This document shows, piece after piece, positions 12,124 through 60,779 of a stretch of 64,000 nucleotides of DNA. This stretch comes from a methanogenic archaeon ISO4-H5. GTDB lineage: Archaea > Thermoplasmatota > Thermoplasmata > Methanomassiliicoccales > Methanomethylophilaceae. The stretch covers positions 1,674,001-1,738,000 of the forward strand of contig CP014214.1 of assembly GCA_001560915.1 (NCBI GenBank), read 5' to 3'. A model generated the notes under the pieces. That model saw only the letters and a program-made list of their open reading frames with translations. It was not told the DNA's origin and did no database searches. The stretch's first letter is position 1. The number at the start of each line of letters is the position of its first letter. Position numbers and translations under genes: made by a program.

Positions 12124-12252
12124 ATGACCGTCGAATACTTCGAGAACGGGGTCGTAAGGTACCTGGATCACTACGACCCCCTCCCCGATGACGAGCGCCC
12201 TCGCAGGAGAAGACCCAGACACCACGATTCCCTTCCGTACGGGTGGTGGTGA
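12124..12252 (+). CDS. Small Arg-rich ORF upstream of the integrase (42 aa)
   Basis: ATG at 12124 follows GGAGGT by six bases, and TGA at 12250-12252 lies one base before the ATG of the integrase. The translation is acidic/aromatic at the start (MTVEYFENGVVRYLDHYDPL), then strongly basic (RPRRRRPRHH), ending GWW. Its position and charge are those of an excisionase-like or translationally coupled leader peptide, but no family is recognised. Confidence 0.5.
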   Translation: MTVEYFENGVVRYLDHYDPLPDDERPRRRRPRHHDSLPYGWW

Positions 12253-12253
12253 T

Positions 12254-13333
12254 ATGTCCCGCAATCACATGTCCGAGGCTGACCTCGGCGGATACAGGCA
12301 GGACTATCTGTACAGCCCGTACAGCGGCAGTGCGCGCCATCCCAAGGCGGATGTCGGGTACGGCGGCAAGACCAACACCAGAAACGTCCACACCCCGGAC
12401 GGCTGTATCTATGAGTTCCTGAACGCCAAGTTTAGGAACGCCAAGAAATACACCCGCGACAAATGCAGGTGGAGCCTCCGCCGCATGACGAGGATCCTCG
12501 AAGCGGGCGGTTTCGATGCCTCCCCGTTCAAGATCGATGAGGATGCGGTCAACTACATCATGGATGAATACCGCGCCAGAGGAAAACTTGACAGTTACCT
12601 CGAGGGGGAGATCGCCTACCTCAACCGCTACCTGAAGTTCTTCAGGAACTATACGATAGTGGACATGAACCCCCAATTCTCCCAGGACATGAGGGTGAAC
12701 GTCCACTGGCTCGAGGAGGACCAGTACCAGACCCTCATGGATGTAAAGAAGACGCCCCTGCAGGACATAGTCATCCACCTGGAGCTGTGCCTTGGATTCA
12801 GGAACGCGGAGTGCTGCCGCCTCACCCTCAGCGACATCAACGACAGCGGCACCAAACCCTACTTCAACGTTAGGGGAAAGGGACGCGGAAACGGGAAGTA
12901 CAGGACCGTACGCTTCCATAGGGACACCAGGGCCGTCCTCAACAGGTGGCTGGACGAACGCGAGAGGATTGTCCGGATCGCCCGGGAGAACATCCCCCAC
13001 TGGCAGGACCCGGGATACGTCCTCCTGTGGTGCCACTACAAGAACCACCCTGACGTGGGCTACTACAGGGAGCACACGGGAAGCCTGGACGATGCCGTCC
13101 TGGACCCTCTCAGACCCAAGGTCGGATTCCATTTCTCCAACCACGACCTGAGGAGGACCTTCGGCCGCAGGCTCTACCATGCGGGCGTACCAATTGAGAC
13201 CATCTCCAAGTTCCTCGGCCACGAATCCACCGCTGAGACCCTCAAGTACCTGGGGATCAACCTGGACGATATGGACGAGGGCATGAAGAAGCTCGACGCA
13301 TACGACAACAAGATGGGGGTAAAGAAGAGATAA
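12254..13333 (+). CDS. Tyrosine recombinase / phage-type integrase
   Basis: 359 residues from ATG 12254, chosen because it follows the small upstream ORF by one base. The frame is open upstream, but translation there overlaps that ORF. Catalytic motifs are clear: the first Arg in LCLGFRNAECCRL, then NHDLRRTF (H-x-x-R), then LGHESTAETLKYLGI with His and the nucleophile Tyr. An N-terminal SAM-like core-binding domain occupies about residues 55-150. The organisation is that of archaeal viral/plasmid integrases. No tRNA-embedded attachment site is visible nearby. Codon use is GC-rich compared with the RHH genes before it. Confidence 0.9.
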   Translation: MSRNHMSEADLGGYRQDYLYSPYSGSARHPKADVGYGGKTNTRNVHTPDGCIYEFLNAKFRNAKKYTRDKCRWSLRRMTRILEAGGFDASPFKIDEDAVNYIMDEYRARGKLDSYLEGEIAYLNRYLKFFRNYTIVDMNPQFSQDMRVNVHWLEEDQYQTLMDVKKTPLQDIVIHLELCLGFRNAECCRLTLSDINDSGTKPYFNVRGKGRGNGKYRTVRFHRDTRAVLNRWLDERERIVRIARENIPHWQDPGYVLLWCHYKNHPDVGYYREHTGSLDDAVLDPLRPKVGFHFSNHDLRRTFGRRLYHAGVPIETISKFLGHESTAETLKYLGINLDDMDEGMKKLDAYDNKMGVKKR

Positions 13334-13740: not shown

Positions 13741-14160
13741 TCAAAACGTTATACTAATGTTGAACATCTCCGCTATATGTTGCAACGATTCCGAAAGGAA
13801 AACGCGTTCATCTATCTCTTCCAGATTTGCCACCAGTTCCGGAACGAATTCCTCTTCGGAGATGCGCACACTATCGGTACCATTTGTCCTGGGCTATATG
13901 TGGACCTGGAGCGTCTCCACCAGAGTCTTCTTGCGGTCATCCCCGCTCCACCTATAATCCATGTATGCCCCGGTAATCTTGTACAACGTGAACGTTCCGT
14001 ATTCACCATACTGCCTGAAACACCTCCCTATGAGTTCCCGGGCCTCCTGGAGTTTCCTTTCCTCATCCATACATAGAGATTCATGCTCCTCCGCAGACTT
14101 GCGGTCATAGAACGTCCTGTTGCAGTTCTCGCATTCGAATTTGGTGTACTCGCGCACCAT
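13741..14160 (-). CDS. Zinc-finger protein with in-frame amber codon (possible pyrrolysine)
   Basis: Start ATG 14160. Residues 8-30 form a C2HC/C2H2-like finger (C10, C13, H26, C30; FECENCNRTFY). At codon 89 (13894-13896) the frame meets TAG and then continues for 50 sense codons to TGA at 13741-13743. The downstream part reads as ordinary protein (ISEEEFVPELVANLEEIDER and VFLSESLQHIAEMF). The full product would be 139 residues with a candidate pyrrolysine at 89. With amber as a stop it would be 88 residues. Methanomassiliicoccales decode TAG as pyrrolysine in methylamine methyltransferases; use in this kind of protein would be new. A nonsense mutation is the alternative. Confidence 0.65.
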
Positions 14161-14192: not shown

Positions 14193-14253
14193 TGTTAGAT
14201 TTTGTGTTCCTCTCGCTCACACCAACATATAGCCAGGAACACAAAATCTAACA
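14193..14253. promoter_or_regulatory. 19-bp perfect inverted repeat in a divergent promoter region
   Basis: The arms 14193-14211 and 14235-14253 are exact complements (TGTTAGATTTTGTGTTCCT and its complement) around a 23-nt centre. It lies between the minus-strand zinc-finger gene and the plus-strand 14286 gene. It could be an operator for both or a stable RNA hairpin. Confidence 0.55.
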
Positions 14254-14285: not shown

Positions 14286-15545
14286 ATGCAAGGACCAGGT
14301 ATGCAGGACGGAGACGAACAGCGCATGACCGCTAGTCTTCTGAAGTATCTTACAAAAAACAGGATGCATGACGAGTACTGTCTGAAGGACCCGGGCGACA
14401 TCGAACTATTCGAAGAGATCGAACGCATCGTCAGGGAACTACCCTCCTCGGAGAAGAACCTTGACGTACGTACCTTATGGATCAGCATACCCCGCGGCCC
14501 CATCGAGGACTTCGGCGATTACGAGGACTACAAGGAAGATTACAACTACGAGGAATTCGTAAATCTTTGGAAGTACGAACATCCTGATGAAAAGGATTGG
14601 TATGTATTCCAGTATGAAAAAATACCCTGGGGCCCCAGATATGTCGCCTTGGGTAATTTGGGCTTGTTCTGCGAAGAAGAAGACAAATCGTTTAGGGATT
14701 ATTCAAGGGGCCACACCGGTCTTCTGAAATGGCTGGTGGGTATACTGAGAGAGACCGTGGATTCCGTGAAGGACGGCACATATCACGACTTGGTCGTCAG
14801 CCAACTGCCCATAGGTTACCGCAAGGGAGTGGTCAAAAGATCGGATATCTGGAAAAGCGGATATTGGTCCAGAGATGACGATCTTGACGGCATCACCGAC
14901 GAGGAGATTGAGAGATTCATCGAACTGGTGGACGGGGGGATTGAACAGGAACCTAAGGAAAAACTGGAATCTATGACCTTGAATGATTATCTGACACTGT
15001 GTTCGGTATGTTTCAGAATATTCGGGAGGGACATTGCGGATAAATCCCCCGCAGAACAGTTCAAAAGGTTCGCCGATGGACGTGACGAGGGCCTGCTGGA
15101 GCTAGATCCGGATGATCCGGATGCGTTCAGACTGTTCTGCAAGAGTTCCCACAGCGGCCATGTTTGGGAGATTTTTCCGGGCCATAGCTATTCCCGCATA
15201 CACCTGTATCCCCACACTGACGAGAACGGATGGTATCTTTACCTGAACGGACCGTTCCATCGCAATCACTTTGTGCACATCGCCCTGGAATTGACCTCCA
15301 TGGGAATCCCGATGAAGATATACGAAGCGAGCAAGGTCGTAAACGCCCTGAAGGGAGAGGATTACATCGGGATTATGCCGAGGGGGAGTTTTCCGCAGTA
15401 TTGCAGCCATCTCTTCACTGAACACGAAGTTATGGACTGCCTCTCGTTCAGGGAGGAAATGCTGGAGAAATTCGGAGATATGATCGAATGGTACGCGGTG
15501 AACACATTCTACCCTGTAATATCAGACTCTTCTAAAAAGGACTGA
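14286..15545 (+). CDS. Hypothetical acidic protein (about 420 aa)
   Basis: The frame starts anywhere from 14202. I prefer ATG 14286 (or 14301), outside the 19-bp inverted repeat, though no strong ribosome site supports either. The protein is rich in Asp/Glu and aromatics (for example EDFGDYEDYKEDYNYEEF) with no signal peptide, membrane segment or metal motif. C-terminal segments such as WEIFPGHSYSRIHLYPH and DENGWYLYLNGPFHRNHFVHIALEL suggest a beta-rich domain. The family is not recognised. Neighbours are a divergent zinc-finger gene and a disrupted DUF1016 nuclease gene, so it may belong to a defence or mobile island. Confidence 0.65.
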   Translation: MQGPGMQDGDEQRMTASLLKYLTKNRMHDEYCLKDPGDIELFEEIERIVRELPSSEKNLDVRTLWISIPRGPIEDFGDYEDYKEDYNYEEFVNLWKYEHPDEKDWYVFQYEKIPWGPRYVALGNLGLFCEEEDKSFRDYSRGHTGLLKWLVGILRETVDSVKDGTYHDLVVSQLPIGYRKGVVKRSDIWKSGYWSRDDDLDGITDEEIERFIELVDGGIEQEPKEKLESMTLNDYLTLCSVCFRIFGRDIADKSPAEQFKRFADGRDEGLLELDPDDPDAFRLFCKSSHSGHVWEIFPGHSYSRIHLYPHTDENGWYLYLNGPFHRNHFVHIALELTSMGIPMKIYEASKVVNALKGEDYIGIMPRGSFPQYCSHLFTEHEVMDCLSFREEMLEKFGDMIEWYAVNTFYPVISDSSKKD

Positions 15546-15851
15546 AATAACGCAAACAGAGGTGAATCGATGGATAGTGAACTTAAGAAATTATGTAAAA
15601 TGGACAGTACCTCAGACATAATTGGTGATATGGAACAAATTATCAATCGTTCCCGTAACATAGCATATCTGTACGTAAACAGAGCCCTGGTTCTACGCAA
15701 CTGGTTGATTGGAAGAAGAATTGATCAGGAGATTCTAAAGGATCAAAGTTTCGAAGATAATTATGGTAAGAAACTGATTGGCCTCTTTCTGAAAAACAGT
15801 GGGTAATCGGTTGGACAAAAGTACAAACGTCTGATTCCACATTCCGTTTCC

Positions 15852-17084
15852 ATGAATCCTCTCAACAGTTTCATGGAGAAGGCAATCGGAATCGTCCCGC
15901 CTTGGTTCGTGAAGTCTGTGGAATATGACGGGGTGGAGACCGTCAATGTCGAATTGGGATTCGACAGGAAGCACAGGCCGGCTGCTCCGGCCTGTCCCCG
16001 CTGCGGCGGGGAATGCAGCTATTACGATATGGTGGAGAAGACCTGGAGACACACGGATGTCTGCGACTGGATGTGTATCGTTCACGGTGTAATCCCCAGA
16101 GTGAAATGCGGATCATGCGGCAGCGTGACCAGAATCAACGCCCCCTGGGCATCGGATTCCATCAGCAAGTTCACGCAGAAATTCGAGGAGAAGGTCATCG
16201 GTCTGACGAAGAAGATGCCCGTCTCCGACGTATGCAAAGAGATGCGGCTTGACGACAGCACGGTCTGGACCATCATCGAAAGACACGTGGACCGCTGCAT
16301 GGATCATCAGGATCTGGCTTATGTGGACACTTATTACGTGGACGAGAAATGCATCAGGAAAGGCCGCCGTTATCTCAGTACCTTCCTGGACCAGAACCAC
16401 AGGGTAATCTATGTGGGAGAGGACAACACCTCCGAGACGGTGAGAGGATTCAGGGAACATCTGGAATCCCGCAACGGATGTGCCGGTAACATCCGGCACA
16501 TCAGCATGGACATGGGCGCCGGTTTCAAGAAAGGTGCCGAAGAGTACTTTCCCGACGCCGAACCGACGTTCGACAGATTCCATGTCACCGAACACATGAC
16601 CGAAGCAGTCAACGATACCAAGAAACGCGAATACTGCGACCTGGTGAACTACACTCCCGACGAACGGGGGATGATGAAAGGGCAGAAGTACCTGTTCCTG
16701 AAGAACTACGACAACCTGGATGACGGGAAGAAAGGGAAACTGCACGATCTGCTGTCGATATTCCACGATCTGGGAATAGTGTACAGGTTCAAAGAGACCT
16801 TACGGAAACTCTGGGACATGTCCTGCAAGTTTGATGCGTGGAAATTCCTGATGGATTGGATCGAGTCTGCCAGGAGAACAGGGATTCCGGAATTGATCAA
16901 GGTGACGAACCTGCTGGAGAATCATTCGAAAGGTATTCTCAATTGGTATGATTCGCATATCAGCAACGGTGTGATGGAAGGGTTCAACAGCGTTCTTCAT
17001 GCATTCAAAGGCCGTGCAAGGGGATACCGCAGTTTCGAGAGATACCGGACGATGATCTACCTCCGCTGTTCCGGATTGTGCTGA
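15852..17084 (+). CDS. ISL3 family transposase
   Basis: 410 residues, ATG 15852. An N-terminal zinc-binding domain has CPRCGGEC and a second pair, VKCGSCGS, at about residues 48-95. This is followed by an HTH-like segment (DVCKEMRLDDSTVWTIIERH). The DDE core shows VDTYYVDEKC, HISMDMGAGF and SNGVMEGFNSV with the final Glu. Length and domain order are those of ISL3 transposases. The gene is intact inside the 15781-17273 element, and a 10-bp hairpin (17213-17236) follows it. Confidence 0.92.
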   Translation: MNPLNSFMEKAIGIVPPWFVKSVEYDGVETVNVELGFDRKHRPAAPACPRCGGECSYYDMVEKTWRHTDVCDWMCIVHGVIPRVKCGSCGSVTRINAPWASDSISKFTQKFEEKVIGLTKKMPVSDVCKEMRLDDSTVWTIIERHVDRCMDHQDLAYVDTYYVDEKCIRKGRRYLSTFLDQNHRVIYVGEDNTSETVRGFREHLESRNGCAGNIRHISMDMGAGFKKGAEEYFPDAEPTFDRFHVTEHMTEAVNDTKKREYCDLVNYTPDERGMMKGQKYLFLKNYDNLDDGKKGKLHDLLSIFHDLGIVYRFKETLRKLWDMSCKFDAWKFLMDWIESARRTGIPELIKVTNLLENHSKGILNWYDSHISNGVMEGFNSVLHAFKGRARGYRSFERYRTMIYLRCSGLC

Positions 17085-17212
17085 CTCTTGTAGGTAGACA
17101 GGTAGGGGGCAGTCCCTATGTTCAACGGACGTATGACGAGGGGGAGCCCGTCCTCCCCCGAGGAATACGTACGCTTCTCGGTGTTTTCCTGATTGTGACA
17201 GATTTTGTTAAC

Positions 17213-17236
17213 GTGCAATCGCGGGTGCGATTGCAC
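17213..17236 (+). terminator. Hairpin near the right end of the ISL3 element
   Basis: GTGCAATCGC/GCGATTGCAC, a perfect 10-bp stem with a GGGT loop, followed by TTATTT. It lies 130 bp past the transposase stop and inside the element. Confidence 0.55.
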
Positions 17237-17583
17237 TTATTTCGTTCTGGCCCACTGAAAATCAGAAAGAACCACTGATTGTGGACCTATCTAGAAAACT
17301 TACCTCCGAATACGGTAAGGGATTCAGCCCTAGCACCCTCTATAAGTATGTCAGATTCTACAAACTGTTTCCGAAGATATTGTCCACAGTGTGGACACAA
17401 TCTTTTTCCTGCCTGTCATGGAGTCATTACCGCTTATTGATAGGAGTTGTAAATGATGATGCCAGAGTGTGGTATGAAAGGGAAGCTGCTGAGGAATCAT
17501 AGGCCGTGAGAACTCTACAACGCAATAAAGAGTCCCAGTACTACTTTAGAATGATAAAGGCCCCTAATCCAGAAGATCCGTGA

Positions 17584-59675: not shown

Positions 59676-60779
59676 TCACGGGAACAGACGCTTGCACCTG
59701 ATGAGTTTTCCCATACGGCGCTTGCCGAGCAGTTTCATGCATAATGCGGTGCTCTTCTCGCTCCTGAATGCGAAGGTGTCCGCCAGCTTCTTGTTGCCGG
59801 CGGCAATCTTTAGAGGTTTGTAGAGGACGTTGCGCCAGGCCTGTTCGTATTCGGCCAGGGAACGGTTGTGAAGAACGTTATCGGCAGCGACCTATCCCGC
59901 CATACGGCCGGTAATCATCGCCTGGGGGATTCCTCCTCCGTTGACGGACATCACGACTCCCGCGGCGTCTCCCACCACCATGCCGACATCGGCATAGGTC
60001 TTGGACACAGGGCCCTCGCTGGGCACATACTTGCCGCGGACCGTGGATATGACCTTGATGTCGTGAGCGTTCACGAACTTGTCGAAATATCCGCGGAGGG
60101 ATCCGTTAGAGAACTTGGGGGAGAAACCGACACCCACGTTGGCGGTGCCTGCCTTGGGCATGATCCATGCGTACGCCCCGGGAGCGATACCTCCGAAGAA
60201 CATCTGGATGTACGGATCGTAATCGCCCTCGGCCTGGGCGGAAACAGCGGGATAGGGATTCTGGTTAGCGGGGAGTCCCAGGCTCTGCGCGACACGCGAA
60301 CCAGGTCCGTCGGCACCGATGATCGTTTTGAATTCTATCTCGCCCTCGGAGGTTTTGGCGATATTGCCTTCCCTCTCGTAGAAACGGCAGCACTTGATGA
60401 GATCGGCTCCGGATTTCACCGCCTGGTCGGCAAGATACTGGTCGAAACGGTCCCTGTCAGTGGTGTATCCTGTAAAAGGGAACTCCCAGACGCGGTCCTT
60501 GGGGTCGATGAGCCTGATACCCTCGACGTTGCGGACTGCCAGATTCGAAGGGAGATTGAATAGTTCGTCGGCTCCGGTAAGGTTGGGGAACATGTCCGTG
60601 ATCTCCTCGACGGAAGGCATGAGCTCTCCGCAGCGGACGGGGGTCCCGATGACGGAACGGCCCTCGATCATGGTAACTTTCACGCCTTTCTCGGCTGCAT
60701 AACGTGCTGCGAGACTCCCCGCAGGACCTGCACCGACAACAAGAATATCGGTCTTTAGTCTCTCTGTCACTGGAATCAC
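59676..60779 (-). CDS. Geranylgeranyl reductase family protein with in-frame amber codon (candidate pyrrolysine)
   Basis: GTG start at 60779, overlapping the idsA stop (GTGA). FAD site GAGPAG (16-21), a second motif IIGADGPGSRVA and GDAAGVVMSVNGGGIPQAM are those of digeranylgeranylglycerophospholipid reductases. At codon 296 (59892-59894) TAG follows ITGRMAG. The same frame continues for 71 codons (VAADNVLHNRSLAEYEQAW, then KLADTFAFRSEKSTALCMKL) to TGA at 59676, reading as the normal family C-terminus. The full product is 367 residues. Family members usually carry a residue such as Glu at this place, so GAG to TAG is one step. Pyrrolysine insertion is the likely rescue in this clade. Confidence 0.8.

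What the first reader, a model, noticed from the sequence alone, without database searches (positions are those of the whole stretch)
13741..14160. Zinc-finger protein with in-frame TAG and a 50-codon continuation
The C2HC-finger ORF meets TAG at codon 89, then runs 50 more codons in the same frame to TGA with clearly protein-like composition (acidic helices). A random frame in this AT-rich region would rarely stay open so cleanly. It may be a pyrrolysine-containing regulator or an amber-switchable C-terminal domain.
Basis: partly seen in the sequence, partly recalled or inferred. Interest (0 to 1): 0.72.

Follow-up and report, generated by a model that had tools for sequence, protein, structure and literature searches.

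The report
Zinc-finger gene with amber codon
A small zinc-finger gene in a rumen methane-producing archaeon carries an internal TAG that this organism probably reads as the rare amino acid pyrrolysine, as it does in dozens of its other genes, so this is one more candidate of a known kind and not evidence of a new switch.

Summary
The geometry is real, but on the minus strand: ATG at 14160, TAG at codon 89 (13896-13894), 50 further open codons, TGA at 13743-13741. The genome (1,937,883 bp; probably Methanomassiliicoccales isolate ISO4-H5) carries a complete pylT-S-B-C-D cassette. In 864 kb sampled, nine ambers lie inside single Pfam/NCBIfam domain matches (e.g. citrate synthase, Cas3, MtmB). 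The only clearly terminal ambers belong to two insertion-sequence families. So TAG in a real gene here is more often sense than stop, and pyrrolysine at codon 89 is the best reading. Nine relatives from this order carry the finger plus 86 or more further residues; a stop at codon 89 would leave 58. No homologue aligns significantly with the tail, and HMM tests with swapped tails gave no support. No hairpin follows the TAG. A pyrrolysine-containing full-length protein is likely (about 0.75). A dedicated amber switch has no positive evidence. The published genome paper already counts 46 amber-bearing genes.

The parts
13741..14160 (-). Zinc-finger gene, read through TAG: ATG at 14160 to TGA at 13741, 139 residues
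   Evidence: Translation with TAG read as a residue
14071..14139 (-). C2HC zinc finger, residues 8-30 (C10, C13, H26, C30)
   Evidence: Sub-threshold DUF7128 and zf-C2HC_2 matches; the four ligands are invariant in six aligned proteins
13894..13896 (-). In-frame TAG, codon 89; proposed pyrrolysine codon
   Evidence: Sequence; pyl cassette in the genome
13744..13893 (-). Open 50-codon continuation after the TAG; coding status not proven
   Evidence: Open frame; neutral composition; no significant homology
14193..14253 (.). Perfect 19-nt inverted repeat with a 23-nt spacer that holds a TATA-like sequence, between the finger gene and the divergent gene; possible shared promoter/operator
   Evidence: the repeat finder; promoter role is inference

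Best explanation
This is a minus-strand gene for a small C2HC zinc-finger protein of about 139 residues, of a thin family seen in other Methanomassiliicoccales. Its codon 89 is an amber that the cell's pyrrolysine system (tRNA-Pyl with anticodon CUA, charged by PylS) reads as a sense codon, so the main product is the full-length protein with one pyrrolysine. The amber most likely arose by drift in a host that suppresses TAG efficiently, not as a regulatory device. Shown: the ORF geometry, the complete pyl cassette, and TAG inside conserved domains of other genes in this genome. Inferred: decoding at this codon, that the 50-residue tail belongs to the folded protein, and that the finger binds nucleic acid or protein.
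For: Complete pylT-S-B-C-D cassette. In 864 kb, nine ambers lie within single domain matches: citrate synthase, MtbB, MtmB, nitrogenase-like, geranylgeranyl reductase, LRR_5, RNase_T, Cas3, PHP-type hydrolase. The clearly terminal ambers seen belong to two IS families. The literature counts 46 amber-bearing genes in ISO4-H5 (PMC5011839) and 1.6% TAG stops in M. alvus (PMC4153887). Nine relatives have 86 or more residues after the last finger cysteine, against 58 if TAG ends this protein and 109 if it is read through. All six checked genes around it that are intact end in TGA or TAA.
Against: The tail has no significant sequence match to any relative and its composition is neutral. Homology to relatives stops near residue 59, before the TAG. 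The gene lies near an integrase and IS elements, and IS genes in this genome do end in TAG. Shorter finger ORFs exist in more distant or paralogous loci (L076, L107).
Confidence: 0.75

Rival explanations
1. TAG is the true evolved end of an 88-residue finger protein that came in with mobile DNA. The 50-codon tail is open by chance and at most adds a readthrough extension when tRNA-Pyl is charged.
For: IS genes here end in TAG. A chance open run of 50 codons is not rare (15%). Tail composition and homology tests are neutral or negative. An integrase gene is adjacent.
Against: No terminal TAG was recognised outside the two IS families in 864 kb. Relatives are longer. Their hosts belong to the same order, for which the literature reports pyl genes, so TAG would be a poor stop there too (PMC4153887).
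Confidence: 0.17
2. The TAG is a regulated amber switch: the finger-only form is made when charged tRNA-Pyl is scarce and the long form when methylamines are plentiful, changing the protein's activity.
For: Only the arrangement itself: a self-contained finger before the TAG and a separate tail after it.
Against: No downstream hairpin (z-score -0.08), no relative with TAG at this place, and the same kind of amber occurs in many unrelated housekeeping genes of this genome.
Confidence: 0.05
3. The frame is a decaying pseudogene in which TAG is one of the first lesions.
For: A nearby gene appears split by an ISL3-type element (15570-17502), so parts of this region are decaying.
Against: The first 88 codons still score as coding, the finger ligands are intact, and the frame has no other lesion.
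Confidence: 0.03

Closest known systems
Predicted pyrrolysine proteins other than methylamine methyltransferases in Methanomassiliicoccales (Borrel et al. 2014, PMC4153887; ISO4-H5 genome paper, PMC5011839)
   Same: In-frame TAG in an ordinary gene of a host with pylTSBCD and few TAG stops
   Different: Those were called when one homologue covers both sides of the TAG; here no significant homology reaches the tail. Whether this gene is among the 46 published ones could not be checked
Methylamine methyltransferases MtmB, MtbB, MttB
   Same: Amber read as pyrrolysine in the same genome
   Different: There pyrrolysine is catalytic and conserved; here no conserved or functional role is seen
C2HC finger proteins of other Methanomassiliicoccales (L003, L014, L015, L018, L020, L102, L103, L106)
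   Same: N-terminal C2HC finger, in most an 'L(I/V)G(K/R)' motif, then 86 or more residues after the last cysteine
   Different: The members read have no in-frame TAG; the five aligned are 21-29% identical to this protein

Membership tests
Pyrrolysine-containing proteins | Host encodes tRNA-Pyl, PylS and pyrrolysine synthesis | tested here: met
   PylS, PylB, PylC, PylD above curated cut-offs; tRNA-Pyl sequence upstream of pylS
Pyrrolysine-containing proteins | In-frame TAG within an open frame that continues to TGA or TAA | tested here: met
Pyrrolysine-containing proteins | Homologue covering both sides of the TAG with a sense codon there | tested here: inconclusive
   Relatives are long enough, but tail similarity is not significant
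Pyrrolysine-containing proteins | Pyrrolysine found in the protein by mass spectrometry | not testable with these tools
   Needs proteomics
Pyrrolysine-containing proteins | PYLIS-like hairpin after the TAG (helpful, not required) | tested here: not met
   Fold no better than shuffles, z-score -0.08. PMC4153887 notes that such signals are not obligatory, so this does not exclude membership
C2HC/C2H2-type zinc-finger proteins | C-x2-C-x12-H-x3-C ligand pattern, conserved in relatives | tested here: met
   C10, C13, H26, C30 invariant in the six-protein alignment
C2HC/C2H2-type zinc-finger proteins | Match above a Pfam gathering score | tested here: not met
   Best are DUF7128, 22-24 bits against 25.7, and zf-C2HC_2, 17-18 bits against 27

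The most novel reading that the evidence does not exclude
A finger protein of an integrase-linked accessory region whose C-terminal part is made only when tRNA-Pyl is charged, so that methylamine supply sets which of two forms exists.
Probability: 0.05. Interest if true: 0.7.

Novelty: new member of a known kind. Interest (0 to 1): 0.25.

Why it matters
It adds one plausible pyrrolysine protein outside methylamine metabolism and supports the view that in this group TAG is close to an ordinary sense codon. In practice, gene callers using table 11 will truncate such genes. The value of this single case is modest, because dozens are already listed for this genome and the tail is not proven.

Tried and rejected
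(1) Plus strand at these coordinates: unrelated frame. (2) The genome-contig hit L007 'matching' residues 92-133: a chance match in an unrelated long protein (it looks like a polysaccharide deacetylase) sharing little more than SEEEFVPE. (3) Relatives in IMG/VR viral contigs: none confirmed; phage records gave only finger-level or chance hits. (4) A remembered resemblance of the tail to small phage proteins ending in 'EISEEEF': not supported by PHROGs or phage tblastn, so dropped. (5) My visual alignment of the tail with 'EITLEDA...LEAKVRGFEL' of L014: not significant in pairwise or HMM tests. (6) Synteny: homologues of the divergent 419-aa neighbour are not next to a finger gene of this family in the loci inspected. 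(7) AlphaFold2 on the single sequence: mean pLDDT 48, too poor to use, so no fold search was run. (8) PYLIS-like hairpin: none.

Full report
Observation. The described ORF is real and lies on the minus strand: ATG at 14160, a C2HC finger, TAG as codon 89 (13896-13894), 50 further codons, TGA at 13743-13741. The plus strand at the same coordinates is an unrelated frame. Pfam finds the finger only below curated cut-offs.

Host. The window belongs to a single-contig genome of 1,937,883 bp, which fits the published closed genome of methanogenic archaeon ISO4-H5 (Methanomassiliicoccales; about 1.9 Mb, PMC5011839). The assignment rests on size (the exact published length is recalled, not retrieved) and gene content. 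PylS scores above its curated cut-off, and so do PylB, PylC and PylD, all in one row on one strand. Directly upstream of pylS lies a tRNA-Pyl-like sequence with a CUA anticodon; ARAGORN and Rfam did not report it in the stretch searched.

How TAG is used in this genome. I sampled 800 kb besides the window and called ORFs with a codon model, reading TAG as sense: 681 calls, 38 with at least one TAG. Several of those 38 look like antisense or 5'-extended calls and carry no weight. Nine TAGs lie inside one continuous domain match: citrate synthase, MtbB, MtmB, a NifH/nitrogenase-like fusion and geranylgeranyl reductase, an LRR_5 protein and an RNase_T exonuclease, Cas3 and a PHP-type hydrolase. 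A phosphoglucose isomerase-like protein has domains on either side of its TAG. The clearly terminal TAGs belong to two mobile families: five copies of an rve-type transposase, with TGA nine codons later, and two TnpB/OrfB copies whose continuations differ in length. This agrees with the paper's count of 46 amber-bearing genes, including 17 hypotheticals and 10 IS elements, and with the 1.6% TAG stops of the related M. alvus (PMC4153887). The prior for 'sense' is therefore high for ordinary genes, but lower for genes on mobile DNA. The gene calls are my own and small genes may be missed.

Is the tail coding? Local base composition gives a 4.5% chance of 50 open codons, but 15 of 103 TAA/TGA-ended genes with gene-free, AT-matched 3' flanks are open for 50 codons or more. 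Codon usage of the tail is neutral: likelihood ratio 0.4 overall, 1.3 GC-matched. A classifier with cross-validated AUC 0.95-0.98 gives the tail 0.23-0.48 and the part before the TAG 0.73-0.99.

Relatives. Searches of 147 genomes of the order and 390 drawn from the phylum found a thin family of finger proteins. Nine members were read. All have the finger, most have an 'L(I/V)G(K/R)' motif, and all have at least 86 residues after the last finger cysteine. Our protein would have 58 if TAG ended it and 109 if read through. In one MAFFT alignment the residue after the TAG, Pro90, is invariant, but a wider alignment does not keep that. Tests of the tail itself: a family HMM gives about 0-1 bit. Pairwise sums against all nine relatives are reached by 1.8% of off-frame decoys, 11% of real C-termini of other genes and 29% of shuffles. 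HMM scores of chimeras with decoy tails match or exceed the real one in 79% of cases. So relatives support a longer protein by length, not by sequence.

Mechanism. Most likely tRNA-Pyl decodes the amber and the 139-residue product forms. No hairpin follows the TAG (z-score -0.08), and no relative with a TAG at this place was found. The amber is best seen as a tolerated mutation in a TAG-suppressing host, as PMC4153887 proposes for M. alvus. The function of the protein is inferred only: a finger protein, perhaps DNA-binding, next to a tyrosine-type integrase (12188-13333) and divergent from a 419-aa protein without a Pfam family. Between the two genes lies a perfect 19-nt inverted repeat with a TATA-like sequence in its spacer.

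Comparison with what is known. It would work like other predicted pyrrolysine proteins of the order. Membership is not fully shown, because the criterion used in the literature (one homologue covering both sides) is not met with significance. From memory, not retrieved (searches found no copy), a recent study argued that some archaea read all TAG codons as pyrrolysine; if so this case is ordinary.

Probability. I combined TAG use in this genome, the open-frame rate, neutral composition and relative lengths informally to about 0.75 for a genuine full-length pyrrolysine-containing protein. This is a judgement, not a computed posterior.

Noticed in passing
window 14193-14253: Perfect 19-nt inverted repeat (TGTTAGATTTTGTGTTCCT, 23-nt spacer) between the divergent finger gene and the 14286-15545 gene, with CATATAG in the spacer; no other pair found in the genome with the 14-nt core. 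Possible two-way promoter with operator.
   Followed up: partly
window 13885-13901 and 14225-14241: The DNA around the TAG codon (ACATATAGCCCAGGACA on the minus strand) resembles the spacer and arm of that inverted repeat (17 nt, 82%); may be chance.
   Followed up: no
window 59676-60779, minus strand: Geranylgeranyl reductase-like gene with an in-frame TAG at codon 296 and coding signal on both sides.
   Followed up: partly
window 15570-17502: A gene that from memory resembles DUF1016 seems split by an ISL3-type transposase (15852-17084); its downstream piece contains a TAG with similar-looking sequence continuing after it.
   Followed up: partly
window 14286-15545: 419-aa protein with no Pfam or PHROG match; relatives at 33-56% identity in several genomes of the same family.
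   Followed up: partly
L063:6673-6743, minus strand: tRNA-Pyl-like sequence directly upstream of pylS, not reported by ARAGORN or Rfam in L004, whose stretch covers this place.
   Followed up: yes
L088:6173-7480 and 15857-17236; L055:5565-6518 and copies: TnpB/OrfB and rve-type transposase copies end in TAG in a genome that otherwise seems to avoid TAG as a stop; readthrough may extend these proteins.
   Followed up: partly
L018, L103, L106, L003: In three relatives, two or three diverged C2HC finger genes lie side by side, as if the family expands in tandem on accessory DNA.
   Followed up: no
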